Positions 3,001-30,517 of a stretch of 64,000 nucleotides of DNA are shown piece after piece. The stretch spans positions 84,562 through 148,561 of the forward strand of contig JAPYMA010000467.1 in NCBI GenBank assembly GCA_035041965.1. The letters run 5' to 3'. The notes beneath the pieces are model-generated. The model was not told the origin of the DNA. It saw nothing but the letters and a program-made list of their open reading frames with translations, and searched no databases. The translations under genes and the position numbers were made by a program. Each line of letters begins with the position of its first letter. Positions within the stretch are counted from its first letter, which is position 1. The stretch is from Anisakis pegreffii (Eukaryota > Nematoda > Chromadorea > Rhabditida > Anisakidae).

Positions 3001-6000
3001 AAGGAGGTGATCGGTGAGAAGTTTGCCAAATACACTCACTCGGATTAGATGCATACGACCACGCTTCTCGACGAGCATCCGCACTCCTGCAGATTGTCCA
3101 TCAGTCTTTGCACAGAGTTTTCAACTGAATCAACAACTGACCAGTATTATCAACAGTGACCGAGTGCAACTTGCGCGCCGATAGCCAATTTGGCAGTTGT
3201 ATTTTAGTTAAGTGCATCTGGAAGTTATCGGGTGATCGTGACGTGCGATTGCTGGGTGACACAATGACGAGGTCATCTTTACGCATCAGTCGAATCTTGG
3301 CCAGTTCAACGAGCTGATTAGTGCCTCCAGCATCCAGCTTCGAATTCGCATCGCTCGCCGATTTATAAACGATTCCGCAGTACGCACCATCCACCTAAAT
3401 ACTTCACCATCAACTAACACTCTTCCTGCACCACCAGCCAAATCAGCATCATAAATACTCACAATCTTAACGATGGCCGTGTCTTGCGAGTTTTCTTCGT
3501 GAATGAAAATTACGTCGTTCAACGCCCAAGCCGTTTCACGAAACGTCGGCGTTACACTCTCTTCACGCGGTCGTTTTCCATTCTCTACAATATCAAATAT
3601 AAACATTTTCTCTTCCATCGAAACTTTCTCCAAGAGCAAATTTTAGAGCCTCTGATCGACTCAGATTGAGTATGAACGTCAATATCGAAACAACAAGCAA
3701 TAAAAGCAAGAGATAAAGCAATCGAATGTGCCTTCAGCTATACAGAACAACTAAAGAAGCTACTCCACAATACCAACTATTCATTCAGTTTCAACATCTC
3801 TCAAGTGAATCAATGTCTATGATCAATTCAAACCATTTCCATCAAATGTGTGCTCACAGACCCATAATAGAAACTAGCGAAGATTATCAATGCTCTCCTT
3901 TAAATAGAGTAATGACACATTCCTGGAATATATATGATCACACTCGATGGAAATGGAGATATACATAATATCTGTGCTGATCACATCCCACTTCTCTGAA
4001 TTCGGTTACGAGCTTCTTATTTCTCCAAACTGCTCATCCACTTCCAGATATTGGCGAACTCTAAATAATTCAGTTCCTCCAAAATCGTAACTCATCGCCC
4101 TCGTAGACCAACACTCGATACTATATATAAAGCAACCTAGACTAATGCGCCGTTCGGTCCTTCCTCACCGCACTCTCATCAAAACAAATGAATATAAATT
4201 GACTAGTGCACAATTGCTGCACACTTCACATGCATAACTCACTCACTCAACTAAGAAGACCGTAACGGCGCAAAAACAAGACAGTACATCACATGCAATC
4301 AATGACAAATCATTCTCAGAAGTAATCACGACAGGTCTACTGCAAATGCAACACAACACTAAGTGGGAAAGTGAGTGAGGAAGGAACGATACGCAATGCA
4401 TTAGTGAAGGATGACTCAACTCACGATTCAGAATGCTCTTCTTATGAGACGAGCACGACGCCGAGCTGAAGGCTTGTCTAGCTTCGCTCTCATTCTGTTG
4501 GTCATCACCTGAATGCTTTTCTCGTGTACTTGATTCGTCGTATTGTGATGGTGTTTGCACTCGAAACCTGCACAGTTCCGCTAATGTCCATGCTGATTCC
4601 ATCAACGTCCCGATCTATAAATACCTCTATGTATTCTTGTATCAACGTTGACTGTGCAATCACTTACCATCGGTACTCCAGAGACAAAGCTAATCGCAAT
4701 CGATCCAGCCATATAAATGGGATGAGACTTGGTTCGTACTTCGCATCCCTCAGTGATTTCACTCACGTCGAATGTCACATGACGTCTCGAACGTGACCGA
4801 ACTCGCTCCCAGAGTTTGCGTCGTTCGTTGAATGGATAAATGCCCCTTAAACACCAGATTTGATGTTAGCATCAAATCAGACCAATAACAACATTCAACT
4901 AACCACCAATAAAAGTTGTTGTTGAGTGTTCTGACCAACGAGAACATTGGACAAGCGTACAAAGCGACAGCCTTCTCACCATCAGGCACGTCACTCAACG
5001 GCATCATCAGCAGTTTGGATACACGTTTGCCACATGCACCTGCATCCATGAATGATGCCACTCGATTCGCTGATGTTAGGATGCACGCTCGATACGCACA
5101 CGTCACTATATCCACGATCTTCTCTCCGTTAAAGCCCTTAACCAACATGGCAAAAATCATGCTTCAGCTCTTAATTCGTTTTATAATTTAACTATTCAAA
5201 TGAAATATGAACTAGAACCAACGTTCGCTAAGATGGCTTTAGCGAAAGGATGTTGTGCTACTGTACCATTGCTACTCTTCCACGACCATCCATAAATGAA
5301 ACCATCATCAGCCAATGCTATCAATTCACTGTGCATTGACACTATCTTCGTGAATTTTGTGACGCCATATGGCAATTTATCCTGAAAGCAGTGAATTATC
5401 TTTTCATCAGGGATAGATTCATGCCGAACTGATTAAATCGAATAAACGATGAACTAACGTCGTCATCATTCCAATACTGCAATCGATCATAGACTTTAAT
5501 CACTGCATTCGTACCATCCGATGTTGGTTCCTTCGATTTATCGTTTTTCTTTTCTAAGCAATGAATGCTTTTATTCAAACTGCTTGCATTTGCACAATGA
5601 TGATATTGATAAGCGGCTCACCTCCTCGATCGGCCTTGCGCCTGGCAATATCCCTGGCTACGACATAATCGAAGCCATTGCCAGTGGCTGCATAAAAAGC
5701 ATCGTGGTCAATCACTGCCGTTCCTCGAACATCTGATCTCAAGCCTGCATCTAACAAAGACAACAACTCCTCTGGTAAATACGACTCTGAACCTTCGTCC
5801 ATCTCGTCACCTTCAATACACATAACAACAATAACACGAACACAATACTACTACCAATCATAATGAAACACACCGTCCTCGTCATCTCTACTCAACAAAT
5901 TGTTCACAGCTTCGTTAACATTCAGATTGGTCCGTTGCAGCTCGCGTACGATCACATCGCGTGATTTACCTTGCAGCACAACCTCAAGTTTCATTCATCA

Positions 6001-8202: not shown

Positions 8203-8209
8203 TTGTCTT

Positions 8210-8215
8210 CTGAAA
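8210..8215 (-). promoter_or_regulatory. Probable SL trans-splice acceptor of ubr-5
   Basis: On the minus strand AAATTTCAG is followed by eight bases and then the ATG at 8202. This is the usual position of a nematode spliced-leader acceptor. A cis-spliced 5'-UTR intron would look the same. Confidence 0.55.
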
Positions 8216-10288
8216 TTTATTTATTAAATTCTATTCGTTCGCGAACGAAGTTTCATTTTGAATTCAACAATGAAACTGACACGGCCAAGTGCACTTCAGA
8301 ATTCGACAGAAAAAAACGGAACGGAAAGCACACGTGGTTATGAGTTCGAACTAATGATTGGTTGGCTGATTGTGCTTTAATGATGGTACAACGTTACGGA
8401 ATAACTACAACCCGACGGGATTTAGCAACTGCACAAGAATGCTAACTGCTTACGATCAATGAAAGTGGACTGAGTAGGATGATCAGTGTGAGTGGTTGGA
8501 CTGAGCACTGATTGCATGCAAATTTTGAACATGAGTGATGAGTTCGATCTCTTCGCTCATCCTTGCATTACTTTAAGCGCACAACATCAAGAACGCACTC
8601 ATGAAAACAGCACATGCTCATCGTATTGATTGGTTTAATGCAAACGTTTAGAAGTATAAACATCGGGGAATGATACCATCGCTTTACTTAGTATGATTGC
8701 AAGCGGTAACAGTTACTGTTGCTTGCTAATATCACACATTCTAGTCTAGGAGCATTTTATGGATTCATTTCATTTCCTGAACATCCAGCTCTCAATGGAT
8801 CATTCATAGTACAAAATCGAATCGAACGTCAGAGAAGGAAGTGTGAATAGCAAAAAGAACACACGCAAAGTCCATTTCACATCGCCATTTTATCTGTTGC
8901 ACATCTCCCATGACGATGTCGAATATCGAAATGACATTGATTCTACTTTAATCATTTGCATAACATATCCCCTTGAATGCTGCTTTAGCCCAACCTGATA
9001 GTTTACAGGGAAACACTTTGATCTGATTCAATCAAAGCAATGAATTTTTTGGAATATTTCAAAAAAAATCCAAACTTTTCAAAGCATTTTTAATTAGCGC
9101 TATAACACGGCACTACGGAGAACAAAAGGTTACGGCGTCGTCGCAATTGGCCATAGAGCGCAAGGGCGGAGTTACAGAAGAGCATGCGCAATTGTGATTG
9201 TGACTAAGCGCTTGAATCATAGAAACTTATATCAAATGTTCACCGGAATTGGATGAAATCTGCTACAATTTTGGAAAGAAGTCAATCTGAAACTGTTTCG
9301 AATTGATTCTGAAAGAAAGAACGTAGCAGTGGTCCGGGCTCATTCTGAATGGATATACAGTGCGTTTTTATGGACCGAATCTTTGTTAGAAATATCAACC
9401 ATCGTTTCCTAATTGTTGATCATTTCTTGATTTCACAAATCTTTATTTCATTGGCTTCACATTTTTTCTTTATCTTTGGACAGATACTTCGTAGAGTTCG
9501 TTGAAGGCCCTCCTTTTCTCTAATGACTGTTCTCTGTTCAGTTCACTTCCCCACGATGCCGTCGTGACTCCACCCTCCTCCCGTCGACACGCTCGTATGG
9601 CAAACTGCGTATACACCAGTATTATCAATTCAAGAGTAAACGGCTTTGAGTGGTGCTCAGAAAGGTGCTCATACGGTGATGCGATGGAGGAAACTCGCTA
9701 TTGCAATCAGTCATTGCGAGATCCGAGTAATTTCAAACATCCTCTGAAAACGCGATGCAAAGTAGTCTAATGATTAAGCCTGAACCTAAGCTTAAGCTCA
9801 AACCTGGCTTAAGCCAGAGTGTGTGTGTATGCATAAGTTGCTCAGCATCAATTGAAGAATGCTCTGGTTATCACCATTAGCTCTTAAAAAAGCCTGAAAA
9901 TAGTGGCTCATCCTCTGTATAATTTTAAACATTCCTCGAATCGCACGTATCAAGTAACTATGCAATGGTTTCACAAAATCAAGCGTCATGAAACGTCATT
10001 TGAAGTGGTAGAGTGCAGATGAAATTGGCTATTGGATGGTGTAGATGTTTCTTTGAGCACCAAAATCCTTCATTAACCACCTCCTAACTTCGTGGCGTCC
10101 CATCACGTAAAAGTATGCAGTTATGACGGCAATATCCTTGATTTTCACGAGGCAGTTACCCTCGCTTTCCTAACGTCCACTCATTTTCCCTGAGAAGCTA
10201 CTTCGGTAGGCGCTCAATAATTGCGCACTGCCAATCCTTCAGGAAACGCCCACGGACAAGTAATCCTCTCTGGACGCAAAATCCTGGA
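8216..10288. other. Intergenic, upstream of ubr-5
   Basis: No gene recognised. It holds the presumed ubr-5 promoter. A short open frame at 9501-9770 has no recognisable domain and no clear splice partners, so I do not call it. Confidence 0.5.
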
Positions 10289-10361
10289 TGACCCTGTTAG
10301 GACTCGAACCTACAGTCTTCGCTTTAGGAGAGCGACGCCTTATCCGTTAGGCCACAGGCCC
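10289..10361 (-). tRNA. tRNA-Arg (anticodon CCT)
   Basis: Read on the minus strand, the cloverleaf is: acceptor GGGCCTG, D-arm GCCT/AGGC, anticodon arm TCGCT-CTCCTAA-AGCGA with CCT at positions 34-36, and T-arm loop TTCGAGT. The A-box-like TGGCCTAACGG and the B-box GGTTCGAGTCC both fit RNA polymerase III promoter consensus. A TTTT terminator follows a few bases after the 3' end. No intron is seen. There is one acceptor-stem mismatch (3-70, G-G) and one at the base of the T-stem (49-65), so a decayed copy is possible. CCT reads AGG arginine codons. Confidence 0.82.
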
Positions 10362-10870
10362 GACTGTTATGTTTGCCGTTGTATGATGTATTGAAATTGA
10401 TTCATTCCAGTTAACAATTAGCTGAATACTGGTGCCTGTACGTAATATTATAAATAATTATGAGCGATCCTATTATACAGTTATAATTTTATTATCCTGT
10501 TGGTCGGTAATTGATAATGCGTTGTAATGAGAGCATCAACAACAGTATTCGCAAGTTTATCGGAGAACCCGATGAATTCCTTATACCAAGTAATTGATAA
10601 AATGAATTCGCAGATAACAGAAAAGTTGATATGATCTAATGATCGTGGTACAAATATATGATCTAAACACATCCAACTGTTCGTGCATATCACTTTTTAA
10701 ATTCATTTTCGGATCTTAACTTTACTTTTTATATGATACATTCATGAGTAATAAAGTTAATTCCAGAAACAACAGTAACAATTCTACCAAAAGCAGATAA
10801 AAATGACAATCACCAATGCAATAAAAGATTAATAACAACTCTCTACATGATCGATCATTTGATAATGACA
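10362..10870. other. Spacer between tRNA-Arg and cobQ
   Basis: AT-rich sequence holding the 3' flank of cobQ. A minus-strand AATAAA (forward TTTATT at about 10488) is a candidate but distant poly(A) signal. Nothing else is recognised. Confidence 0.4.
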
Positions 10871-12448
10871 CTAATCAGTTGTTTGCACTATACCATCACA
10901 ACAACTCCCCTTAAGTATTTGATACATCAAATCTACATTGAGATGTTCCCTCAGGTGTGCTGCTAGTTTATCATATTGTTCCTCTTTGAACTGTGCATAA
11001 TCAAACTCGGTCTTTTTACTCAATTCGCCGAGGTGACCTTTTAAAAGGAGATCGATAAATGGTGCATTATCAAGAATGCCATGAATATAAGTGCCCATGC
11101 AACGCCCCTCTGCCACGTAACAACCCTCCTCAGTGCCATCATCTAAAACATTCAACGGTGTAACTTCACCCAACATCTCAGTAATGCCGTTATGTATTTC
11201 ATAACCGCTACACAGCTGATCACTTCCGAACACCTTAAATTTCGTCTGACACGTTGTTTTAATATTGTTCATCGTTGTAGTGACTGGTAGCAGAGAGAGA
11301 CCTGGTAAACAACGAATATCGCTTTCGACTGCATTCGGATCTCGCACCTCTTTACCCATCAACTGATAACCTCCACAAATACCCAGAATGGTTGCATTGC
11401 CGTCACGATATGCTGATACTATTGCCTTCGCTACACCATTCGCACGTATTTCCCGCAGATCATCGATGGTATTTTTAGTGCCAGGTAGTAAGATGATATG
11501 TGCCTTCTGGATTTCACTTACATTATTCGTGTAGAAGAGATGCACTCGTGGGTCACGTTCTAAGCTATCGAAATCGGTGAAATTGGATAAATGTCGCATC
11601 AGTATAACTGCAACATTGATCTTGTTTTGACTCGAGAGAGCGTTACGATGACGTGTTTGCAGTTGCACACAATCCTCTTCTTCAATGTAAATATCTCGAT
11701 AGAATGGGATAACACCCAACACAGGTACACCACATATCTCTTCGAGCATTTTAACTCCCGAATCAAACAATCGAATATCACCTCGAAATTTATTGACAAT
11801 TATTCCCTTGATGAGACGACGATCTATAGGTTGCTGCAGAGCGATAGAGCCGTAGAGAGATGCGAAAACACCACCGAGGTTGATATCTGCGACCAGAAAG
11901 ACGTCTGCTTGCGCGTGACGTGCCATCGGCATATTCACCAAGTCTCGATCTTGCAGATTCAATTCAGACACACTTCCTGCACCCTCCATCACGATCGGGT
12001 TGTACTTGTGCATTAAGCGATCGAAGGCTGCACATACCTGAAAGAAAATTAAAAAGATAAGATAAAGCATAGCGTTAAAAGTAATTACCTGTGTTCGTAA
12101 CTCATCAATTCGATCCTTACAAAAATATGTCGATGCCGTACTATTCCCAATGGGACGACCATTCAAGACGACCTGAGATGTGCAGTCGGTTGTTGGCTTC
12201 AGAAGAATCGGATTCATGTCAGTTTCGCATTGTACACATGCAGCTTCGGCTTGCACGGCTTGCGAGCGACCGATTTCGAGGCCATCGGGCGTAACGAATG
12301 AGTTCAGGGCCATATTCTGCGCTTTGAATGGGGCTGGATGATAGCCGTCTTGCTTAAATATACGACATAGTGCTGTCGCTAATACACTTTTCCCAACATC
12401 ACTCGCTGTTCCGGCCAGCATTACAGGGTGCAGACGAGTCATCTCCAT
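10871..12448 (-). CDS. cobQ: Cobyric acid synthase (CobQ/CbiP), intron-bearing, bacterial-type gene
   Basis: In bacteria this glutamine-dependent enzyme amidates adenosylcobyrinic acid a,c-diamide at side chains b, d, e and g during cobalamin synthesis. There are two exons: 12089-12448 (120 codons) and 10871-12037. The 51-base intron at 12038-12088 starts GTAATTAC and ends TTTTCTTTCAG. The spliced product is 508 residues, normal for the family. N-terminal ATP-binding synthetase domain: P-loop-like GTASDVGKS (residues 13-21), FKAQNMALNSF, EGAGSVSELNL and NKFRGDIRLF. C-terminal class I amidotransferase domain: nucleophile Cys341 in ILGICGGYQLMG, GYEIHNG (398-404), and His439 in GTYIHGILD. All expected catalytic residues are present. 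There is no frameshift or internal stop. The sequence style recalls Bacteroidota CobQ (from memory, not searched). No other corrin gene is nearby, so the cellular role is unknown. Confidence 0.95.
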   Translation of the reverse strand: MEMTRLHPVMLAGTASDVGKSVLATALCRIFKQDGYHPAPFKAQNMALNSFVTPDGLEIGRSQAVQAEAACVQCETDMNPILLKPTTDCTSQVVLNGRPIGNSTASTYFCKDRIDELRTQVITFNAMLYLIFLIFFQVCAAFDRLMHKYNPIVMEGAGSVSELNLQDRDLVNMPMARHAQADVFLVADINLGGVFASLYGSIALQQPIDRRLIKGIIVNKFRGDIRLFDSGVKMLEEICGVPVLGVIPFYRDIYIEEEDCVQLQTRHRNALSSQNKINVAVILMRHLSNFTDFDSLERDPRVHLFYTNNVSEIQKAHIILLPGTKNTIDDLREIRANGVAKAIVSAYRDGNATILGICGGYQLMGKEVRDPNAVESDIRCLPGLSLLPVTTTMNNIKTTCQTKFKVFGSDQLCSGYEIHNGITEMLGEVTPLNVLDDGTEEGCYVAEGRCMGTYIHGILDNAPFIDLLLKGHLGELSKKTEFDYAQFKEEQYDKLAAHLREHLNVDLMYQILKGSCCDGIVQTTD

Positions 12449-15400
12449 TCAACTCTATCTCCTCAAAAATTACAACAAAACCATTAACTGCTCTCCTCAA
12501 AATCATAACCACACGTGAACTCATGAGCACGCACGAATTCACAATCCATTCTCCACTCAACATGCAAGAGGTCAATGTCTTTCCTTCTTTGCTAAAAAAA
12601 CGTGATTAATGAAATGAAATCGTAAATTTTTATAAAGAATGAAATGGAAAATTCAATAAAATCGAGCGGAAATCGATGGAAATGTGAACAGAAAAGAAAT
12701 ATATAAAGAAGTGAGAGTAATATGGAAATAATGTTCAATTTGAAAATTTGTGAAGCGATAGCAAACTTCTGTGTGATACAAATATAGCTTTCATCTTTGT
12801 TGTTTTACTCTCTCTTTCCAATACTCTTTCAACATAGCTCTCAACGTTCCAGCTAAAATTGCTCCTTTTACAATTTTCAGTGCTAATTACAACACAATCG
12901 AAATACTGATTATTGTTTTTTTAAATAAATTGTTTGCAAATCCCGATTATTCTCTCGATCCCGGGATTAAGATTTGATCCCGGAATTGGAAAGCAGTTTT
13001 TAAATATAGAAGCGTGACATGTTCTAAGCATTATTTTTGAAGCAATGTGTTCATTATTAATCAGAAAGCAGTTTCATTCCCATGAAATTTCGCAGACCTC
13101 AGCAACTCCTTCAACTCTCCCGATCAATTAATTTTTTCTACCTCAAAAAAGCAATCTCTATAAATCGAAACACGCTCTCATGGCTGACGAACTCATTTTC
13201 TACCTTCTGAGAATGAAAAAAGTGGTGTTTGCGACCATATTGGCGACTAATGATGTTGCATAAAGGAGCTTTAGTGTCTCATAAGTAATTTCTGATACTG
13301 CTTAAGAAAGCATTTGTCGAGTTTCAAAACTGCATCAATATCTTTAATTAACGAATAATGAATGATGACCGCACATCAAATATTAGCAAGCAATTTATAC
13401 TTCACGATGATTTTTGTGTTTTCTGTTCCAATGAAAATACCTCAGTAGAACACGTGATACCCACTTCATAACCCGAATTCACTCCGTTGTATCAGTCACT
13501 GAAACAATTTGTTCAGTTGTTGACATACTGCTTATAACCACCCCTCGTTTCATATGTCCATCCAAACAATCTTTCTTTTAACTGATCCTATTCCATTTCA
13601 CTCGCCATTTCAGTTCATCATTTACGTTCTCATCAAACTTGAGAACAACTCATTTCAAAATTAATTACAAAGGATGTACTAACTAACAACTGCTCTAATA
13701 TAATAACGTTGTTGAATTCCATGTTTTTGCACTCGTTAAATCTGCTAATAATTAAGTGATAGTCAACATCTAGTTCGAACCATTGATATTTAGCTAGTAG
13801 GATGATTGAATGACTCGATGTTGTGTTCGTGCTAAACTTATAATAATTGACTTTTGATAGTCAGTTGTTCAGAATATTACACTTTATTATTGTATACTTG
13901 ATGTGAAATGGAATGCTTCATTTGAAAGATTACATGCTTGCTGGATAGCAATAATCACAGCTAACTACTCACTATTAAACTCAACCAGCTCGAATTCATA
14001 TCTTTCAAAAATTCTCAGTAATTGTTTGTTACTTCAGCAAATCATAACTTGCGATTAGTGTTTGCAAAATCCCGACGATTTTTCAATATCATCAGGTCCG
14101 ATAACTTTTGAAATATAAAAGTATCACGTGTTCAGCACATCCTCGTTCATTTATAATTCATTTTGCAAATCATACACACAATAGTATTTTAAACAAAGCA
14201 TTCACATCAGAAAACAAATACAATTCAGATATAACATCAAGAATTAAATTTTCTGCAACAATATCTTGACTTTTTCTGTAAATAATTTCAATGTATTAAT
14301 AATCGTGTATCACAGTTCGTCATGAGATTCAATCATTCGGGTATTCAAAAGAGGTGTTTGTATTACCGATTAACATCAGATCAAATCAAGAACTGCGAGG
14401 CAAGCGTTTAACTGACTGATCACCTCATTGATAGAGAATGCTTTCGGTGTTGCCGAAAAAACTAGCCTAAAAGTCAGGACGACATCACTCACCATCCATC
14501 TGATTCTTGTCGAGACGACGAACATCACTCACTTTCCATTCATTCAATTCCTTCTCTCATTTCCAAATTTCATTCAAATCTCAAATTCATGGAACAAAAC
14601 ATTATTGATTAATCTGATGTGTCGAATCAGTTAAGGTAGGGTGCAACAGTTAAAGTAGAACAGCGCAGTAGCAATCACATTAAATATTCATGCATTTTCA
14701 CGATAATCATTAGGCTCGCCTCAGTCGTCACCTATTACACGTAAATAAACATTTTATGCATATATTTATATGTTCACTAAAAGATAACTCCTTGGCTGCT
14801 TCAGTCGTTAATCCAGTTTGCATTAAGTTCACTCACTACTTTTCAAGATAACACAGAAGCTGAATATGCTGCATGATGAGCTAGCAAGAAAAAGAATAAA
14901 AAGAAGAACTCACAACCAAGCAACAATATCTCACTCAAGTCCTTTTCCAATATTCCTCGTCACATCGATAAATTTTTCCCCAATGCAAAGCATCGAATCC
15001 AAACTTTTGCCATCCATCGATTCACTCTAGCAATAATAAACTCCTCTCTCAGAATGCACATCGCTCAATATTAAGTAATCAAGCGCACATTCGTTCATAC
15101 TTCGTTGTGTGTAACTTGTAATCCGAATCACTCACAAACAAGAACTAACTGATTGCAGTCCTAAAATAAATGTCCTCGTGGCAATAAGAAGTTGGTGTAT
15201 CGATGAATTAACGAGTTCGTTTCAATGGAACGTAATAGTTATAATGACACCATTAAGAATGTTACAATAATAATGAATGTTGATCAGAAAAAAATCACAT
15301 GCAAACAAACAAACACTCCGTACATACTTTGCAGAAGGCGAATGCTTGAGGTGAGGTGCAGCATTGCAACGTGATATTTCTATATGTAAATTGCTGGTGT

Positions 15401-17914: not shown

Positions 17915-20900
17915 ATGTCCTCCTACCTGCGACGTGCTATAAATTGTTGTTTCTGTGCGAAACAACGTCGTAATCGCACCTCATCATGTGATGATAGTGA
18001 TGACAATGAATACGATGTTAAGACTGCTATTGTTCCATCACCACACGTCTGTTCTACCACATCCAATAACAAACCCTATTCGAGCACAACCTCACCCGCA
18101 CCACGCATTCAACGACCATTCAATTGGCAGTTGGATTTGAGCACCATTTTCTCTGAATCACTCGAATTCCAAGATGAGCAGCAACCTGAGATGCCAAGTA
18201 ATGCTAATGCAACTGCAAACAATAATGATTATGAGCACAACGTAAGTTTTTTTCAATTTGCACAGCTTTTTCGCATTTATTTTGTTGATATTCCTGCTTA
18301 TCTTTTCATTTCGGCATCCCTTTCATTGGTCGACCCCAGAATGCATTTGCACTTTATTTCATCGAGAGAATATTTGGTGAATGATCGTTTCCATTCTCTT
18401 ACGCTTAATTTCTGCGGATTCCCACTACCCTTTCGCTTTCCTATTATATTATGCCTTTCCTCATTCACTTCAATGATTCATATTTTACCACTTCCTTGAA
18501 TTGCATTCCTAACGCATCTCGAAAGGATTTCTATAAGACGACTTGCCACGAAGCCATCGCTGAGTTCGAGTCGTATTCCTACATAATGGCCGTAAATCTA
18601 TAGACTTGTCCAAAGACTATCATCGTCTGTCGTATCCAAAGAATGCATGACTAAAACATCTGGATGCATAATGCCCCGAATACATCCGCATTCGGATGAA
18701 TCCCTCTATTCGTATGTCTTCACTCGTTTCCTTCCTTCATTCTCGTCAACATTCGTATTCTCTTCCTCCATTGCCACTCGCTCGCGTGCCTCCCTCCTCT
18801 TTTGCCAAGATAAAGTGATGCGTTATTCACAACGCTGATGAGTAATCTTATATCGAACAAATGCTTGTTACAAATCTGTGATTGCTGTTCTATCGAATGA
18901 TTATTCATTTTGTTTTCCGCATTCATTTACTTATAAAACGGACATTTGCTTCCATACATTTGCCGAGTGTTGAATATTTTAAACCACTTTATTCGATCTT
19001 CACTTCCCATTAAAATTTCATCGTTTCCATTGGAAGTTTCACAGTATTCAACAGTAGAAGTGAATTTTCGTCCTCCAACGTTGTCTAAGTCCATGCCAAT
19101 CTTTACGAATTCACTGGGATATCCTCCGGATAAAAATAGGCTAAGTCTAGTCATCAGAAGTCTTTTATTAAGCTTGTTGAACTATTTGTTCGTTGAAAAT
19201 GCAATTTTCAGTTCATTTTCACGTAATCAAGCAATGTATTGTATAAACATTTCAAATTTTCGTTCGATTTTTCGGTATTCATTTCATTCTTTCCGAAATA
19301 AGAACGAAGTGGAGTCGAGTGTGATTCATTCATGCATTGTTGCCGGTGACGTTGATATGATATTGCTGTGTGCATATCAACGCGCATTCAAAACAACTAA
19401 TGTTCTGGTCAACAATAACCGTCTCATGAAGTTGTTATCAATTTATGTTCAGTAAATGGTTGCGACGTATTTTATTGTTTCCTTTCATTCGTTGATTAAG
19501 CTTGCATGCTTTGTGTGTTGTTGAATGGATTGATCCTTTACGGTTGCTCTTTCATTCCAATTCATTTTAACGTTTAATCTTCGTTATAATTAAGATTGCT
19601 TACGGTATTGATGCTCTTAGGTATTCCTTGAAATTCAGTCGTGTTTCTGTTTCAATTTTCGTTCTCAGAATTAACCAAACTGTCAACCTCATCAGTTTTT
19701 ACGAATCGTATCAAACTTTTTCTGTCTATTATATTTATGAAACGGTCTCAATTTAGCCAAAATTTGATATTTATTTTGAAACTGATTAGGAATTTTAGTT
19801 TGTGAGAGATTCCATGTGTGCCACACGTAGATCTTATCATAAATGAGATTCTAAAATCCACTTGAATGACCTATTAATAATTGCAGGTTTTCCAAACCCA
19901 TCAACCCGCGCTATTGTTACCACCTTTACAAATGAGTGCGCCATCAGCCGATTTGGAACGATTTCTGCAGAGGTTGGAGTTGGTCACGACTCGACTCGAG
20001 GCAATCAGTGCTCAGAAACCGACACTTGCACCGAAACCTGGCAGTAAGGGCGCATCACCACCTGCTCAGAATGGTTGGTGAATTAGAAGGAAAAGCATAG
20101 GAAAGGGGTGGGAGAGGGTAAGGTGGGAAATGTGGTGAATGAGGATTAGGGAAACGAAAGGGAAGATTCGAGTAGGGCTGAATTGCGGGATTTCAAGAAG
20201 GGATGTTTGTTTCGGGTCGAACATGAATAGGATGCTCAGCGAAACCTACTTTTCTTATAGAAGCTGTGAGAAGAACTGCAAATGAACTCTTCAGATGCAT
20301 AAGGTAAAGGTGTTTGTTAAAACTGATCTCATCCCGACTAATCTCAACACCTCTATAAATGCTGAAACGTCATGCATAATTTCTTCTCAATATTCCATCT
20401 ATCACATTGAACCAATCACATAGGTGCATCCATCCACAACGATAATACCACCTCAAAACTGAGCAGTTTATATTAAATGCAACGCGCAAGGTGCTTATAT
20501 CCGCTCTATACGCAGCCTCTCATCACTTATCTTCTACCATATCACAGCCCAAGTCGTTATTTGTTATCTTATTTTCATTGCATCCGTTCTTTTCGTTGTT
20601 CAAATTTCGACATGAATAAAACGGAGTTACATCTCTTATTTGTTCTTATTCATTTGTCCACAATTTGGTTACCGAATAATGCTGTCCGTCGCATCTTGAT
20701 AGATGCATCAATTTCTACACATTACTAGCTCATTTGCAATTAAATTTACTTCCTTAACCAATTTCTGCTTGTCCACATATTCCCAATCTGCCAGCGATAT
20801 GTACTTGTTGATTTAGTGCACAGTTTCGTTGCAGTCAGGTGCAGTTAGGTCTTGCTTCATTTGCTGGTGGTTCAGCCGATCGATACGAAGCCAGTAGCTA

Positions 20901-23900
20901 TCATATCGTGATATTTAAGCTGATGATTATTACCAGATGTGCTACTTATTATTTTTACATCTGATATCAATTCAAATTAATCACTGAACTGATTTATGTG
21001 ATGATTGATACGTAGGTTCGTACATATATTACTTGAGGGTGTTACAGCTGTAGCATTAACAACAAGAATTTGTGTTCGTATCGGAAAGATGAGATGAAAG
21101 ACTGCTTTAAAATGAAGCAGAAGGTTTAGTGAATTGAATGTGTTCTAGCACATGGTTACTTTAACAAACGGTTTAGCATCTTTCGAGAAGGATGAAGAAA
21201 AGAGATACGACAAACTGTATGTAGCCGATAGGAGCTGAGGAGAAAGCTTAGGCTAAATGTTGTAGGTGTATATCTATGCGGTATGATGCATACAAGCAAC
21301 AATATCTCTGCACATATATTATCCACATATATCACCCAAATATCCACATTAACCACATCCCTGCTAAGACTACTTCAACAAGGCACTAATGTTATTCAGA
21401 GAGAAGTAAAGAAGCAGATATAAGCTGAGCTTTACCTCATTCCTATACAATACTTCAGTTTCAAAGCAGTCTTTCTCTCTAACTCCTGGAAAACTAGTAG
21501 TACCGTTATCAGTATCACATCCACTTGATTTTGTATAGCATTCAATCTATCTTTCTTACTGCATTACTTCATTGTAAACCCAACTCACCCCAAACCTTCA
21601 TGCTTTGATTTCACTCCTTCAATTCACCTCAGATCTATCTTACTATTACACTTCTCTTTCAGTCCTCGATTAGTGGATCCCACTCTACCAAGGCCAGTGC
21701 TATTGCTCTTGATCTACTCATAGTTCTGATATAATAGTATTGACAATTGAATGTTAGTTATAGTTACCGTAATATCCTGATGGCTTCGTAGTCATATGCA
21801 TCAGAAATTAATGCTTTGATGCTCAAGGTTGTTATCTGTTCTTCATAGTTTATGTCTATCCAGAATATAGTATACTTGGTCTTAGAGGTATTTTCGCAGT
21901 CGGTTCAGCTTAACCTTTTTTTGCAAACTGAGGAAAGCGGTAGCTGAGATGAAAGGATTACAATCTGCATCAAAAAACTAGCCATTGAAATCAATTGTTC
22001 ATTTTTGTAAATTGAACTTTCAATAAGTTCAGAAAGTATTTATGGGTTGATCATTATGAAATGTTTTAAGAAATTCCCTGGGTTTGTTGCGCTGAAGTGT
22101 TTTGCGCTAGGGTGAGGGTGATAGATATGTATACTCGATGAAGATAAATAGACGAATAAATGATTGCAGTTCGCATAAGGATGTGGTTATATGATATTGT
22201 AGTTCAGTTGATGACTTCGTTATTCATATTGCTAACGACTCATCTTTTGCAAATCCAGAACGAACGTTACAACTTTCGAGACTTAATTTCATCTCGTATT
22301 TTGCATTGTCGTTGAATATAGCTTTTGTAAAGTGATCGTAAAAAATATTCATTCGTTTGCAAAATCATAAAAATTCGAGATGCTTCAATTCTTCTTTTAG
22401 TTCACTTTCTCGAAGGATTATTTCAATGATTCGTTCTGTTCACTTCAAAATAAATTGAAGTTCGTTTCTTAACTGCGGCTGAATGCTGCTCTCAACCTGC
22501 CATCTACAGATTTATTTTGTCGATTTTGTTGCAAACAAACTTCATTCATTCTTTACCAACAGTAGTTTATGAGAGGCTTTGTTCAGTTATGTGTTCGAAT
22601 CAAGTTAGATAGTTTGGATCTGGTTCGTTATATTAATAGTAGCAGTTGCAATGTTTGTCGTAGGCTTCATTTTGCAAAAATGGAGACTCGGATTGCTACT
22701 TGTTATATTGAGTGAATTGCTGTTTACCTTCACTTCCAGATAATTTCACTAACCTATCCACTCATCGAGTCAGTGCGAAAAGATACGAATTTTGCAAAAG
22801 TTTTGTTGTATGATGCTGAAAATAATGATCAAGTATATACATTTAAGAATAATTCTGAATCTGCTTTCAAGGTGTGAACTTTTTTTCCTCCGATCCTAGA
22901 TTTCGATCTTAAGTTTTTGAATTTGTAATCCTAAGCCCTCTAGTGAAAATTGCTTGACGGGATCAGTCAAGAAAGTTTATGGATGGACTTGACAGTTCAA
23001 AAACTTAAGATCGTTAGTGTCAGGTTGGAGTTTTTTTTAGGTTGTTTCGTTCGAGTTCAAGATGAGGAACTGTTGCGGATATCGCATACGAAGATGTGTG
23101 CATGATATATAATAACAGTTTGCATTTGCGTGCTTTTTAGACGGAAGCGGAAAGATGTGTTCAGATTGTTCGAAAGAGTGATGGGAGGTGCTGATCAATT
23201 AAAGCGATGAATCAGTTAATCAGGAATAACAAGTGTTAATACTTAATGTGCCACAAAGAACCAAACCACAATACTTGATATTCCACTCAAAGTTTTAGTG
23301 AACCATACTGATTATGATGATATCGAATCGATAAGTGTAGTTTATGAACATATTTCAACGTTTGTCAGTCCGATCTAATGCAATTCGATGAAACGAATTC
23401 AAACAAAACGGAATAATGATTTTGGAGAAGGATTCACATTCCAGAACAATATTTCAGTCAGATTTTTCATCAGCTGTTCATTCACTTCTTATAATGCAGC
23501 TGTTGGCCATTTGTAATTCCATTCGCCATATTCTCATCCTTATTCCACGAATTCTTGTTATATGACGATGGTTGAAGCAAGTTTTGGCTATTCTCAAAAT
23601 GTTAGTGTTTAAAGACTAGAGGTGATCAATTTTATGGGAGAAATAATTACAAGTACATATATAAAGTGATCTCCGTCTTCATATTTGCATGATCAGGGCA
23701 TTTCATGTGGGTATTTCACCGCATCTTGATATTGGCATAAGTCTATCACAGAGAGTCCAGTCCCTCAGATTGATCACCTCTCCATTTAGTGAAGAAAGAA
23801 GAAAGTTTGGGGCTTATATTGAACCGAAACATAATCAAACAATAAAAAACTTTGAACTAAGTTAGGTCTGGTTTTGCTTTTGTTTATTTGTGTATCTTTA

Positions 23901-26900
23901 TTTGCTTATCAATTGAGTTTGAAAAGCTTACTGGAGACTGACGTTTGGAGATTAGATAAAAGATGATTGGCATCATCATCCATTTTGCTATCGGGCACGA
24001 CCGCTATCCTGCATCATGTGTTATGAGCAGTGCTTTTACAGTTATAGATTGTTGGTTGTTAGGAAGTATTGTTATCCTGAGAGCGGTAACAGAGATATCT
24101 GCTCGATTGAGCTGAGTTGTGCTTCACCAGTCAGATATTGTTTAATGCCATATTGCAGTAGACTTAAACTTAGGCTTAGGCTCAGTTTTATATTGCTGTT
24201 AAAGTTAAGTAGTAAACGAAAGTGAAGAAAACTACTTGATGGTGAGCCGAAGTGTAGTTGTGGTGTTGCTAGTTCCTACTGGTTGTTGTTAGTGGGTTGT
24301 GGAATTAAAAGTTGAATTTGTTGAATGTAGAACGGAGGTGACTGGTAATAAACAACGAACGATGCTCAAAAAGAGTGATGAAGTGAACACGAGAGGAGTT
24401 TCAGTAGCGAAAGAAGTTAGCTGTAGAATATCAGCTCATCATTCATCTCATCATTTGTTCAGTTATTTGTCCATTCGTTTATCATCACTACCATTGAAAA
24501 CTTGACTGTGTTAATCTCTCGACTCATCGCTTTCTGTCGTTCAGGGTCATAATCAAGTAAAATTATAGATTCGAATGATGTCCACTTTATAATCATCATC
24601 GTCATCGCAAAAAATAAAAATAAATTTAATTCGACAACTATTAAATCGTTCAACTGCATTGCATCCATCTGTCTCCTTTATTAATCATTTCGATACGATT
24701 ATATTGATCTGTACGCACGTATCTGATACCTTAGGGGTTATGTACTAAGAATCGAAGAACTCTTGCTCATCATCAATGCAAATGATGGCGTATTGATTCA
24801 TCAGTGGTCATCTTGCTACCACTCTTCAGAAATCAAGAATCAGGATTTATCATTGCACTAAGTGATTATATTCACCCACGATGTATTTCACCACCCCAAA
24901 GCCTTACGGGCAGCAATCTACGGCATATCGCACAGTGAGTGGCACTGTACCAGCACGACCCGCGAGCAGCATGGCTGTTTTGATAACGCCAGCTTCTGAG
25001 AGGAATTTAGAAGATTCTTCCATACATGATAGTAATAATCAGTCATCAAGAGTTGATCCTGCAAATCCTTCCAAACAATCCTCATTATCGTCAGCATTCA
25101 AAAAAGTCACTGTCACAGCACCTCCTCACCGAATCGGTACTGAACGTTGGATGCAAACCGGAATGCCGCAGAAAGGACGTTGGAATAGTTCAGTAGCTGT
25201 TTTTGATACGCCACAGAGTAATGAACCTCCAAGGGAGTTCGGTATTAATGCGAGACCGAAAGCATATTCCTCATTTCGTGACAGCAGCATTAAGAGCAGT
25301 GATAATAACAGGTTCCAGCAGTATCAGCAGCCAAACAACACCGAAATAGTCAACACAAGACCAGTGCCAATTCAGGTCGATTCTCAACGGACACAGCCAA
25401 ATCAGTCTGCGCTCGGCATTGGAAGAAATATTCCAGTTCGGTATGAAGGAGTCACGGCTACCGTGCCATCGTCACTAAGTAGCTCCACTTATGGAGCTCC
25501 ACATGACGGATTCCATACTACGATCCATCGTTATGCATCGGATCCACGTCGTCCCAGTTCTGCCGTACCATTCACTGAATACAGCTCATCGCAGATGACT
25601 GCTCCGTTCACATCAGAAACCGAGTCTCGTCAGTTCGAAGAACGATCTGTTAATAGTGGGAATGGAACCGTGCGTCAACAACACGCATCTGAAATCCCGG
25701 TCAATTTCGATCGAGTTCAAACCTTTCCGAATCGACCTGCGAAACAACCATCCGAACGACATAATTATACGAGTCTTCACCGAGTTTCCTCACTGCGCCC
25801 ACCTTTTTTCCAAAGACGCACCACATCCGAGGCGGATGTTTTCAGTAGTCCTGCATCATTCATTCCACCATCTCCTGCTCAAACTCCCCTCTCTTCTACC
25901 GGGGATCACTCGAATGAACCTTCGACCAATGCTATGGTGAATGTGGCTCGTAACGTGCGTGAAGAGCTGGAACAAGATCCGAAGTTTCGTCAACGTGCCG
26001 AATCGACCGGTGAGAAGGGTGCATCGCCTCGCCGTTCAAACCTGACTCAATCTCAGTCTTTTCATGCCCCAAAACAATCACCATCTTTGATTCAGATGGA
26101 GAATTATTTGTCCTACCAGCAACGTCATCAAAGTGAGATGGATCTGAATCGCACATCAACAATATCCCCTGCTACCAATCAGTTAAATTATCAGCAGATA
26201 TTTAGTCCTGATATTGTTCGCAATATGTTCACTGGTGGATATTCACAACCTCACTCTCAAACCTCGAGTGAATCTAACCAGAGTGTGCCCTTCGAAGCGC
26301 AACAATCCCAACCCAGAATACCTTTCCGCTCACCAAATGCGTCACAGGATCAACCAACAACCCTCCAATCATCCGCATCCGATTCAGTGTACCGTAACGT
26401 CCCAATAAGAACCCAGCATGAACCGGTCAAGTCGTCGTTACGTGAACAACCGCATGTTGTCATGAATGGTTCTTTCCAGCGTCAGACCCTTTCCCATGGT
26501 TCAGCCGTTGTCCCAATACCACCACCGAAACCTCAGTTGTATGCTATCTCTCCAGTAGTAACAACAACAACGACCACAAATAACGACCGTTATAGCACTG
26601 CCACCAATGCGACTAACAGATATGTAACTAATATTGATATAAATGCTAATAACGCCATCAATGATAACAATCAATATAACACTAGCAATATTCACAATAA
26701 CGAGTTTCATGGTACGAACACTATTCGAGTGAAAACTGTTGCAGCAAATGGTTTTGAGGGGAAGGATAATCAGAAGGCGACATGTGCAGTGAGCAAAGAT
26801 GCTCCTGCAGATGAGAAGGTGAAAAGTGCATCAAATGCGTCCGGTGGAGTGATACCTGAACGAGCCGTATTCATAACTCGACCTCGAGCGTTGAGAATCT

Positions 26901-29900
26901 CTTTTGATGATGAAGGTGCTTCAGCGGTTCATTCAACACATGTATCTATAACTACCACTCCCACTGGTATCCTTCAAAAAACAACTTGTAATAATAACGC
27001 CACCAAAAACGGTAATAACGATGATAATTCTTCATATTCTGTTCCTGATTCCACTTCTGCTGCTATTAAACCACAAAAACGGGTCGTTTTCCAATGTGAT
27101 CGTGATCGAGAACAGTCTTCGCAAATTGCAGCTAGCGAAGCAGGAGTGTTGACTTCTGATGCCTCTGCTTCATACACCGCTTCCCAAAGCGTTTTATCCT
27201 CAGGTAAGAGAATATCGCATCCGAGTAAATGGAGGAGCCTCTATGGATGGAAGGAGCTCCATTCGACTGGTTGAATATTACTCACTAATTCTAGATATTT
27301 TTATGTCCGACTCATTTGTGTTTTCTAATATTATATTTATACGTAATTATAAACAAACAATGGGTTCCGCTGAGGTAATGCCTATGTTATAAGTTGACTC
27401 AGAATGCACATACAAAAACAATTTCTATCAACGATAAACTATATCATAACCTTTAATCTGCATATTCCTCTCTAAATTCTGATAAATTTCAGTTAATCAA
27501 GAAGTACCGCCTTGTATACGACAGTATGATGATGCAATCGAAGAGCCTTTACAACGATTCCTCAAACTAAGCTCAGATATCGGCGCTGATGTCAAAACTG
27601 CGGTATGATGGTCGCCCTCTTCATATATCATTCTTAGGATTTGGTTTATTTTTTGCCATGCTCGAAATCCCTTCCAAATAACAAACTGATGTGGCATTTA
27701 AGGGTGAAAAAGTGTCATTGGCCTTTACACAGCAACGAAACTTTATTTGGAATGCAGCAGGTCAGAAAGAACCAAGTCAAGCAGAGTTAGCGAATAAGTT
27801 GAGTGGCTTGGTGAAATTGTTAGAGGAGTTGTCAGCGTTTAGAGAATCGAAGCGAAATACACCTCAATTTAATCACCTTTCTGCGGTGAGTGAGGGCATT
27901 CAAGCACTTGGATGGCTTACCATGGTCAGTTTTCCTTTCTTTTGATTGGTCATTATTTTACTTTAATCTCAATTTCAGTGCTAATTAAGGCGCCATTAAT
28001 AGTTGTGGCCGTATGGGTTCATACAGGAGTATATTGAATGCTAGAATGAAGAATGTGGTAATAAAGTTGAAATTGCAGAAACCAACACCAGCACCATTCA
28101 TAAAAGATATGAATGAAGCGTCGATGTTCTTCGTGAATCGTGTTCGTAGCGATAATAAAGATGGTGATAAGGTTTGTCGTTCGAATGCTCATTCACCACC
28201 CAGCATTCTTTAATTTATGTTGCCTTCGTCATGATGTAAGGATACGAGAACGACTGCAAGCTGATGTTAACAAAGTGATTTATTCGAGAAGGATGTCATT
28301 TTTAACATAGAGTGTATTTCAGATCCATTCTGAGTGGACAAAGTCGTGGATTGAACTGTTGAACGCGTTACAGCAATACGTTCGTCAAGTGCACACAACA
28401 GGTCTTGTGTGGAATAGCAACCCTGTAAGTCCAATATTTTGAATTCCCAATCAAACATCCTTTTCAAAGCGAGCTCTCTTTCCAGGGTACATTCGCACCT
28501 TCGTCTGCAGCAGCCATAGCATCAGCTCCGGTACCTTCTGGTACCGCAGGCGGTCCGCCACCCCCTCCACCTCCGCCTCCTATGCTTCCTCCAGGTCTGT
28601 CTGCACGTGCAGCTGATTCTCAGCATAATTGCATAACTACATTTTCACAATGTTGCATTAAAAATTGTTCTCTAAATAAAATTTTGCCTTTATACTAGTT
28701 GATCAAATGAAAAATCACTCACCGTATGGCTTTGATACACTGATGTTTTAAATCGCAGAAGTTTTTGATGCCCGTGGAAGAGCGATAGCATGTTGTTATT
28801 GCTATGTGAGGCAAAGATTGAAGTTCTTTTGAGATCTCCTATCAACGACCACCAATCCTTCGGAAGCGGGTGGTGCAGCAGGTCGTGCTGCGTTATTTGC
28901 GGAGATCAATCGAGGAGCTGACATCACAAAGGGTTTGAAAAAGGTCACTGCCGATATGCAAACACACAAGAATCCCGCCTTGAGGACACAGGTCGCCTAA
29001 TTTCTTCACCATTTCACACTTCTCATCGCTTTCTTTCTGTTGATCTCACATTTCTGTTCATTATTTGCTTCCATTCAGTCCGATGGCATCTAAGATCTGA
29101 GTAATTATCATGTCGAACGAATTATATCTGAACAAACTGAAGGATTGTAGCTTATCAATTTCTTGTTTATCTTATCTGAAGTTACCTTTTAATGAAACGG
29201 TTAAAATTTTAAGGTTCCAGCTCCGGATGATGTAGTAAAATCAGGAGAACAGCATGTATCATCAAAGGATGCTGGCAAGAAGGAAGAAGTTCAGAAGCCT
29301 GCAAAAACATGGCTGGAAAATGGGAAGCAATGGAATGTGGTACGTTGACTTATACGAATATTTGTACCTCAAGAAACTAGAAGGACATATTGAAAAAATA
29401 ACGAATGACTTGATTATGTTTTTCAACACATCCTTATTTAAATGACTTTAATAGCCTAATTGCATAATAATGATATGTAAAGGGTATAAATTTCAGGAGT
29501 ATCATAAAAACAATCCAAATATTATTGTTGAAACAACAAACATGAAACAGACAGTGTATGTGTTCCGGTGTGAAAATAGTGTTATACAGGTGAATGGGTG
29601 GTATTGCTTCATTATCTTGTTTTCGATAGTTACAATGGTCTGATATGAGAATGAACATGTAGGATGGTAGTTATTTGGTAGTTATGAACATGAATCGGTG
29701 TTATTTCAGGTGAAAGGTAAATTGAACTCGATAACATTGGATGGTTGTAAGAAGACTTCAATTGTTTTCGATAGTCTTCTTTCTCAAATTGAAGTGATCA
29801 ATTCACAAGGCATTCACATTCAGGTTCGTATTTTATGCTTGCACGTTTCATCATTGAATTTCCTTCGTATCCGAATCTCACGACATATTCTCATTGGTGA

Positions 29901-30517
29901 TCGCTGTCATCTTAATCAAACGATGCATTGTTATTACAGTTGTATGTTTATTCGGATGTTGTGCATTCGAGTTGTGTGTATCTGCACTGTCGTCATCGTC
30001 ATCAAATGAAATCAGGTGTGGAATTTCAGACTCTTGGAACAATGCCAACACTCTCTATCCAAAAGACTGATGGATGTGAGGTGTACTTGAGTAAAGAGGC
30101 AATCGGTGCCGAAATCGTCACTAGCAAATCGTCGGGAATGAATGTTCTTGTGCCTCAAGGATCAGAGGGCGACTTTGTAAGTATTTCTCATCCTCATTCA
30201 GTTTCAACGTAATGAAATCTGAGGTTTTAGCAAAGGTTCTGGCATGAATTCAAAAGGTATACCTCCTTCACTTATTTTTTAAAAAGCTGCGCTTGGTACT
30301 AATAAAATAGGAATGAAAGAAAATTTGTAAATTCGCCAAGTTGAACATGAATATGAAGAGTTTGTTATTTGGTGGATTGATTAAAAAGAAATCGGTTGCA
30401 TGAGTTAATAGATTAATATAAACATTCAAAACATAGACCGAGTTCCCGATCCCGGAGCAATTCAAGACGGTTTACGATGGTAAAAAACTGCAGACGACTG
30501 CATCGGATATTGTTTAA
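17915..30517 (+). CDS. CAP: Adenylyl cyclase-associated protein (CAP/Srv2), standard-N-terminus isoform
   Basis: CAP recycles cofilin-actin complexes and recharges G-actin with ATP in the cytoplasm. Exons: 17915-18241, 19887-20073, 27493-27602, 27703-27924, 28079-28171, 28323-28424, 28486-28594, 28834-28991, 29214-29339, 29497-29589, 29710-29823, 30030-30176 and 30437-30517. They total 1869 bases, exactly 623 codons, and phases agree at every junction. The coiled-coil N-terminus is [19 protein letters not shown]. The helical domain contains [16 protein letters not shown] and [13 protein letters not shown] proline run ([13 protein letters not shown]) and [11 protein letters not shown] (WH2 region) follow. 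The CARP actin-binding domain is [13 protein letters not shown] through [12 protein letters not shown] to [19 protein letters not shown]. Starting at the internal ATG 19932 would give 498 residues, the usual CAP length. The upstream exon adds a 109-residue head with a CCFC cluster. The acceptor at 27703 is the least certain. Confidence 0.9.
20074..24880 (+). other. Large CAP intron, portion before the alternative exon
   Basis: No coding exon recognised. It should contain the promoter for the long CAP isoform. A 17-base inverted repeat at 22905-23012 is listed separately. Confidence 0.5.
22905..23012. repeat. Inverted repeat with 17-base perfect arms
   Basis: GATCTTAAGTTTTTGAA at 22905-22921 is the exact reverse complement of 22996-23012. 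A smaller hairpin (CTTGAC...GTCAAG) lies inside. It looks like a very small or decayed foldback element in the CAP intron. Confidence 0.7.
24881..27203 (+). CDS. CAP: Alternative first coding exon of CAP: 774-residue disordered N-terminus
   Basis: A single open exon begins at ATG 24881. A stop codon lies in frame just upstream and no acceptor lies between, so this is a first exon. It ends at CTCAG|GTAAGAG (donor at 27204) after 774 codons plus one base. The next CAP exon (27493) needs exactly that phase and continues [15 protein letters not shown]. The whole isoform would be 3678 bases, or 1225 residues. The protein is low complexity: rich in Ser, Thr, Pro, Gln and Asn, with many basic-SS motifs and an Asn-rich stretch near residues 565-610 ([14 protein letters not shown]). 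I recognise no folded domain. It lies inside the 7.4-kb intron between the standard CAP exons 2 and 3, implying its own promoter upstream of 24881. The join is inferred from phase, not transcript data. Confidence 0.75.

What the first reader, a model, noticed from the sequence alone, without database searches (positions are those of the whole stretch)
10871..12448. A bacterial cobyric acid synthase gene domesticated in a nematode genome
A full-length CobQ (508 residues after splicing) sits between nematode genes, with a tRNA-Arg and ubr-5 on one side and CAP on the other. It has a 51-base GT-AG intron with a typical nematode TTTCTTTCAG acceptor. The P-loop, the nucleophile Cys341 and the catalytic His439 are all kept, and there are no stops or frameshifts, so selection seems to have preserved it. 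Animals are not known to make cobalamin from scratch, so one isolated corrin-amidating enzyme is puzzling. It might salvage incomplete corrinoids from gut bacteria, or have a new ATP- and glutamine-dependent amidation substrate. I cannot exclude that this transfer has been reported in some nematode group.
Basis: partly seen in the sequence, partly recalled or inferred. Interest (0 to 1): 0.93.

Follow-up and report, generated by a model that had tools for sequence, protein, structure and literature searches.

The report
Bacterial B12-pathway gene inside a roundworm
A nematode genome, probably of the fish parasite Anisakis or a close relative, carries one intact gene of gut-bacterium type for cobyric acid synthase, with a predicted animal-style intron; it was likely acquired by horizontal transfer and would give an animal an enzyme that adds amide groups to B12-like molecules, although five other B12-synthesis families searched for were not found in that genome.

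Summary
The ORF at 10871-12448 (-) encodes a 508-residue CobQ once a 51-base GT-AG stretch is removed (TIGR00313 463.6 bits, cut-off 309.9). None of 108 bacterial/archaeal homologues examined has that insertion. The gene lies between ubr-5/tRNA-Arg and a CAP gene, about 95 kb into its contig, and is the only CobQ match in the 122.7-Mb assembly. An Anisakis simplex protein on a separate 45.8-kb contig differs at 3 of 523 residues and contains the same insertion; the next hits are bacterial, Bacteroides-type, at 57-67%. Trees join it to Bacteroidales-type CobQ (100/100). All 66 positions invariant in the homologues examined are kept, but a DIDRGG motif reads DINLGG. The genome has B12 users (methylmalonyl-CoA mutase, cobalamin adenosyltransferase, methionine synthase) but no match for CbiB, CobU, CobT, CobS or BtuR and no second CobQ/CbiA-type glutaminase. 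It therefore seems unable to make cobalamin from cobyric acid by the known route. Best reading: a domesticated horizontal transfer, likely still a corrin-type amidoligase working alone, perhaps restoring amides on damaged corrinoids. Expression, substrate, and distribution in other ascaridoids are untested. I found no report of it, but the large helminth-genome paper was not held.

The parts
10871..12448 (-). cobQ-like gene, predicted start to stop (508 aa spliced; 525 codons if the intron is retained)
   Evidence: one match in the assembly
12089..12448 (-). predicted exon 1 (codons 1-120)
12038..12088 (-). predicted 51-base GT-AG intron, acceptor TTTCTTTCAG, in frame, no stop; the same 17 residues are read through in the Anisakis simplex model P0001
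   Evidence: absent from 108 of 108 bacterial/archaeal rows; GC 23.5%
10871..12037 (-). predicted exon 2 (codons 121-508 and stop)
12386..12412 (-). P-loop GTASDVGKS, residues 13-21
11870..11887 (-). DINLGG, residues 171-176, where homologues read DIDRGG or close to it (N173, L174 depart)
11375..11377 (-). Cys341, predicted glutaminase nucleophile
11081..11083 (-). His439, predicted catalytic histidine
10289..10361 (-). tRNA-Arg (CCT), neighbour
5875..5982 (-). UBA domain exon of a ubr-5/EDD gene, downstream neighbour
   Evidence: PF11547, 71.9 bits; a UBR-box match at about 1001-1102 has 16.8 bits, below its cut-off of 25.2
17915..30514 (+). adenylyl cyclase-associated protein (CAP) gene, neighbour on the other side; first exon at 17915 assigned by eye

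Best explanation
This is a single-copy cobyric acid synthase (CobQ) gene carried on a nematode contig between host genes, likely acquired by horizontal transfer from a Bacteroidales-type bacterium, likely interrupted by a host-style intron, and predicted to encode a working glutamine- and ATP-dependent amidoligase that would act alone on corrinoid side chains. Shown: the gene, its place, one match in the assembly, its sequence family, the retained catalytic residues, and no match for the downstream families searched. Inferred: that it is transcribed and spliced, that its chemistry is active (glutaminase Cys341/His439 feeds ammonia to a P-loop domain that activates a side-chain carboxylate with ATP), and that its substrate is a corrinoid. 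Because CbiB, CobU, CobT and CobS were not found, it is unlikely to be a step in making cobalamin inside the worm by the known route. The reading I prefer is that it amidates, or re-amidates, the b, d, e or g side chains of corrinoids taken up from food or microbes, for example cobalamin carboxylates formed by acid hydrolysis, so that they serve the worm's methylmalonyl-CoA mutase and methionine synthase. Confidence is about 0.95 for an integrated gene of bacterial origin and about 0.4 for the whole statement with the corrinoid role.
For: Family: TIGR00313 463.6 bits (cut-off 309.9) and NF001989 591.1 bits (cut-off 273). Best protein hit is P0001, Anisakis simplex, on a separate 45,807-base contig; it differs from the read-through window protein at 3 of 523 residues. 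Bacterial origin: 2 nematode plus 31 Bacteroidales-type rows against 10 distant CobQ, support 100/100; best bacterial identity in the aligned set 66.7%. Integration: contig C348, window at 84562-148561, one CobQ match in 122.7 Mb; host genes on both sides. Bacterial DNA polymerase III alpha gives 0 matches, so no bacterial genome is evident in the assembly. Constraint: 66 of 66 positions invariant in 98 (one exception allowed) and in 10 distant homologues are kept, and 192 of 203 positions invariant in the 98; the three most departing bacterial rows depart at 10 of 210, 6 of 206 and 6 of 206. B12 users present: methylmalonyl-CoA mutase, PduO/MMAB-type adenosyltransferase, methionine synthase activation domain. 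CobQ reaction: PMC7242693, passages seen.
Against: No transcript evidence. Residues 173-174 (DR in 104 of 108 homologues; ER 2, DK 1, DQ 1) read NL in both nematode copies, which could mean altered specificity or impaired activity. The gene stands alone: no match to PF03186, PF02654, PF02277, PF02283 or PF02572, no second PF07685 match, no CbiZ. The nematode's 11 of 203 departures exceed the count of every bacterial row examined (highest 10 of 210; median 0). An in-frame stop directly precedes the first ATG, so there is no sign of a mitochondrial presequence there, whereas MCM is mitochondrial (recalled). Whether CobQ accepts a corrinoid that already bears the nucleotide loop is unknown to me; its known product, adenosylcobyric acid, comes before the loop is attached (PMC7242693 passages).
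Confidence: 0.4

Rival explanations
1. A domesticated transfer whose enzyme has moved to a different substrate: a glutamine-dependent ATP amidoligase acting on a non-corrin carboxylate.
For: No match for the partner families searched; two adjacent near-universal residues changed to N-L; the fold class is shared with other amidoligases (CTP synthase, GatD, from a model of only moderate confidence).
Against: 192 of 203 Bacteroidales-type invariant positions and 66 of 66 that are also invariant in 10 distant CobQ are kept, close to the most divergent bacterial CobQ row (10 departures of 210), which points to a largely unchanged site.
Confidence: 0.3
2. A transferred gene without function that has not yet decayed.
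For: No expression data; no DNA from a sister species to test selection; the only other nematode copy seen differs by 3 of 523 residues and may be the same species.
Against: No stop or frameshift; an intron was apparently gained; GC3 0.407 lies below the bacterial mean of 0.57, though inside the range 0.319-0.776 of 80 copies. Random change at the same DNA divergence would leave 34-35% protein identity and on average 14-16 stops (500 simulations for each of 4 bacterial genes), but that comparison also contains bacterial evolution under selection, so it is weak for the nematode part.
Confidence: 0.13
3. Cross-feeding: the worm converts bacterial cobyrinic acid a,c-diamide to cobyric acid and gut microbes finish the molecule.
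For: Explains a lone mid-pathway enzyme; the downstream families were not found in the worm.
Against: Needs export and re-import of intermediates and a steady partner; nothing that I saw in the sequence points to it.
Confidence: 0.12
4. Bacterial contamination or a misassembly.
For: A bacterial gene family; no read data seen.
Against: Intron-like insertion with a host-like acceptor, host genes on both sides, the same gene with the same insertion in a separate Anisakis simplex record on a 45.8-kb contig, no match to bacterial polymerase III alpha in the assembly, and no bacterial relative above 67% among the hits listed.
Confidence: 0.02

Closest known systems
Bacterial cobyric acid synthase CobQ/CbiP (TIGR00313; Bacteroidales type)
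   Same: Full-length homology, P-loop synthetase domain plus class I glutaminase domain, catalytic Cys and His, 57-67% identity to the 119 other proteins listed (118 of them 64-67%)
   Different: Lies in an animal genome, carries a predicted intron, has DINLGG for DIDRGG, a short C-terminal extension against the six bacterial rows shown, and no partner genes found. Of 10 plasmid cobQ genes fetched, 5 have annotated cob genes directly beside them
Horizontally acquired bacterial enzymes in nematodes (for example the ferrochelatase of filarial and other parasitic nematodes; recalled, no call)
   Same: A single bacterial enzyme gene fixed in a nematode genome, touching tetrapyrrole metabolism
   Different: Ferrochelatase fills a gap in heme formation (recalled); here the steps after CobQ were not found
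CobB/CbiA a,c-diamide synthases and CfbB
   Same: Similar ATP- and glutamine-dependent amidation of ring side chains (PMC7242693 passages)
   Different: The five NCBIfam models of this kind score 20.3-39.3 bits, against cut-offs of 254-693
GatD/MurT lipid II amidotransferase and CTP synthase
   Same: Share the glutaminase domain (GatD), or the synthetase-plus-glutaminase fold (CTP synthase)
   Different: Sequence similarity to GatD is weak (21 bits); CTP synthase was not matched by sequence

Membership tests
CobQ/CbiP (TIGR00313) | Full-length profile score over the equivalog cut-off | tested here: met
   463.6 bits against 309.9, profile 1-475 of 477
CobQ/CbiP (TIGR00313) | P-loop and class I glutaminase Cys/His | tested here: met
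   GTASDVGKS at 13-21, Cys341, His439; G13, S16, G19, K20, S21, the Cys and the His invariant in 28 rows
CobQ/CbiP (TIGR00313) | Conserved DI(D/E)RGG motif (my own observation on the alignment, not a published rule) | tested here: not met
   DINLGG in both nematode copies; residues 173-174 are DR in 104 of 108 homologues, ER 2, DK 1, DQ 1
CobQ/CbiP (TIGR00313) | Part of a cobalamin-synthesis gene set in the same genome | tested here: not met
   No PF03186, PF02654, PF02277, PF02283, PF02572 and no second PF07685 match; intron-split genes could be missed, but MCM, MMAB and MetH were found exon by exon
CobQ/CbiP (TIGR00313) | Amidates four side chains of adenosylcobyrinic acid a,c-diamide | not testable with these tools
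   -
Domesticated horizontal transfer in a nematode | Integrated between host genes on a long host contig | tested here: met
   (assembly only; no reads)
Domesticated horizontal transfer in a nematode | Phylogenetic placement with a bacterial clade | tested here: met
   100/100 with Bacteroidales-type rows against 10 distant CobQ; inside or beside them unresolved (30/0); bootstrap not settled
Domesticated horizontal transfer in a nematode | Host-type intron | tested here: inconclusive
   GT-AG, TTTCAG acceptor as in 4 of 8 inferred CAP introns, absent from 108 of 108 homologues; no transcript seen
Domesticated horizontal transfer in a nematode | Expression and selection in the host | not testable with these tools
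   No reads, no sister-species DNA

The most novel reading that the evidence does not exclude
An animal that makes corrin side-chain amides itself: a worm has captured one bacterial B12-pathway enzyme and turned it into a stand-alone corrinoid repair enzyme, re-amidating damaged B12 so that it keeps a B12-hungry fermentative metabolism running.
Probability: 0.28. Interest if true: 0.93.

Novelty: new variant of a known kind. Interest (0 to 1): 0.74.

Why it matters
Cobalamin is described as synthesized solely by prokaryotes (abstract starts of PMC8085122, and PMC10449867). An intact, host-spliced cobQ in a nematode would be an animal gene for one of those steps, and a lone mid-pathway enzyme that seems unable to serve its known pathway. 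It turns the question of whether an animal can repair or remodel B12 into a bench assay with one protein. Ascaridoid worms lean on B12-dependent methylmalonyl-CoA mutase and Anisakis reaches people through fish (both recalled), so a bacterial-type enzyme that vertebrates are not known to have would also be of practical interest.

Tried and rejected
Linkage in the second assembly: I searched a hand-joined CAP protein hoping to see an Anisakis simplex hit on the same 45,807-base contig. So linkage there is not shown, and the protein collection seems thin for ascaridoids. For that reason I draw no conclusion from the lack of other named nematode CobQ hits among the 120 listed (of 7995) and the 120 listed (of 7972).

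Structure: the AlphaFold2 model made from 20 rows is only moderate (pLDDT 71.6, pTM 0.52). It supports the fold class (CTP synthase, GatD) but was not used to place residues 173-174.

A DUF3754 match near 14880-15060 (+) has 20.4 bits, below its cut-off of 27, in a lysine/asparagine/serine-rich reading frame; rejected as a gene. No direct or inverted repeats of 20 bases or more were found in 8000-16000, so there is no trace of a mobile carrier at that setting. The neutral-change simulation is reported as weak because it cannot separate bacterial from nematode evolution.

Seven paired a nematode or Anisakis term with a corrin or transfer term (7, 8, 12, 13, 16, 50, 65). None of their listed titles or abstract starts reports cobQ in a nematode. 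Searches listed only 25 of 443 and 15 of 351 papers. One search lists a paper on possible transfer of transposable elements in Anisakis simplex (PMC12441823, listing only). The large helminth comparative-genomics paper (recalled) is not held. I have a vague, unverified memory that it discusses transferred genes, so a prior mention cannot be excluded.

Full report
What was claimed. A full-length bacterial-type CobQ gene with a small intron between nematode genes at 10871-12448.

What is there. The minus strand of 10871-12448 is one open frame of 525 codons. Profile search names it cobyric acid synthase over its whole length: TIGR00313 446.5 bits unspliced and 463.6 bits once the 51 bases 12088-12038 are removed, cut-off 309.9; NF001989 574 and 591.1 bits, cut-off 273. 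Those 51 bases begin GTAATT, end TTTCTTTCAG, have 23.5% GC against 44.5% for the rest, and code 17 residues that 108 of 108 bacterial and archaeal homologues lack. One of the 108, L081, has a different 24-residue insertion a few residues upstream, so the stretch is not closed to insertions. Four of eight introns that I inferred in the neighbouring CAP gene end in TTTCAG; one of the eight (869 bases) spans further exons, and the method is approximate. The seven others are 100-260 bases, longer than 51. The intron is in frame and has no stop, so annotation programs can read through it, as the Anisakis simplex model P0001 does. No transcript was available.

Where it is. The window is contig C348, 84562-148561, of a 122,655,733-base assembly in 1740 contigs, and this is its only CobQ match. 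On the minus strand, downstream, are a tRNA-Arg and a ubr-5 gene (UBA domain of EDD, 71.9 bits). On the plus strand is a CAP gene whose exons match the CAP protein P0239 (unnamed source) from 19.9 to 30.5 kb, with a likely first exon at 17915 (by eye); the named nematode CAP proteins nearest to it are filarial. A bacterial DNA polymerase III alpha search of the assembly found nothing, while ringing in 10 of 14 control genomes. A separate record, P0001 from Anisakis simplex on a 45,807-base contig, differs at 3 of 523 residues of the read-through protein, none of them within the 17 intron-coded residues. I therefore take the host to be Anisakis or a very near relative; no other marker was tested.

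Where it came from. Apart from P0001, the hits listed that carry an organism name are Bacteroides cobyric acid synthases; most carry no name. The best bacterial identity in the aligned set is 66.7%. A quick tree of 101 rows put the pair on a long stem among Bacteroidaceae and relatives. A careful tree of 43 rows (2 nematode, 31 of 98 bacterial rows chosen for spread, 10 distant) joins nematode and Bacteroidales-type rows with 100/100 against the distant ones, but cannot say whether the nematode copies lie inside or beside them (30/0; bootstrap not settled). GC at third positions is 0.407, against a mean of 0.57 (range 0.319-0.776) in 80 bacterial copies. This fits host adjustment but does not prove it.

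Is it intact? Of 203 alignment positions invariant (at most one exception) in 98 bacterial rows, the nematode keeps 192; of the 66 that are also invariant in 10 distant CobQ, it keeps 66. Left-one-out counts for the 98 bacterial rows have a median of 0 departures, with 10 of 210, 6 of 206 and 6 of 206 at the top, so 11 of 203 is just beyond what these CobQ rows show. P-loop, Cys341 and His439 are kept. Two of the 11 departures are side by side in a motif that is DR in 104 of 108 homologues (ER 2, DK 1, DQ 1) and NL here. I do not know what the motif does. The position that a Salmonella study mutated (D146, recalled) corresponds, by counting against a recalled sequence, to D150, which is an Asp here. 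Purifying selection inside the nematode is likely but not shown: the comparison with bacteria includes bacterial evolution, and no sister-species DNA was in reach.

What it could work on. CobQ/CbiP completes the corrin amides with glutamine and ATP to give adenosylcobyric acid, after which CobD/CbiB attaches the aminopropanol arm (PMC7242693, passages; that passage writes b, d, e and f, while the usual set is b, d, e and g, recalled). In this assembly I found no match for CbiB, no second GATase_3 match and so no CbiA, no CobS, no CobT, no CobU, no BtuR/CobO and no CbiZ. The same kind of search did find, exon by exon, methylmalonyl-CoA mutase, the PduO/MMAB-type adenosyltransferase and the methionine synthase activation domain. 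So the worm has B12-using enzymes but seems unable to take cobyric acid to cobalamin by the known route.

Reading. A lone amidoligase is useful if the molecule it acts on is already complete apart from an amide. Cobalamin loses side-chain amides in acid and the resulting carboxylates are poor or inhibitory cofactors (recalled), and Anisakis adults live in the acid stomach of whales and dolphins (recalled). A re-amidating enzyme would need no other bacterial gene. This is inference, and it assumes that CobQ can take a corrinoid with its nucleotide loop in place. A changed substrate, a non-functional gene and cross-feeding with microbes are the rivals.

Novelty. In the ten searches of the held library none of the listed entries reports cobQ in a nematode (listings and abstract starts only, two of them capped lists). 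The relevant helminth consortium paper was not held. The Anisakis simplex protein is already public under an automatic name. The kind (bacterial gene fixed in a nematode) is known (recalled); a corrin-pathway enzyme, alone, in an animal is a new variant as far as I could see.

Noticed in passing
window 55890-63483: Long satellite array with a 177/354-base unit.
   Followed up: no
window 24866-27274 (+): An 802-residue open frame, rich in Ser, Thr, Asn and Gln by eye, lying inside the CAP gene between its N-terminal exons and its main exons; nested gene or alternative exon unknown.
   Followed up: no
window 7719-8039: 115-base tandem repeat, 2.8 copies, between ubr-5 and the tRNA.
   Followed up: no
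window, about 149 bases upstream of the cobQ ATG (-): TTTTTTTAG, a possible trans-splice acceptor; short upstream ATGs follow it.
   Followed up: no
P0122 and many 865-residue proteins: A large group of bacterial CobQ proteins is listed with an extra AMP-binding enzyme domain (PF00501, PF13193), apparently a fusion; one is named Bacteroides eggerthii.
   Followed up: no
protein collection: CAP hits include filarial and other nematodes but none named Ascaris, Toxocara or Anisakis among the best 120, so absence of ascaridoid hits in this collection means little.
   Followed up: partly
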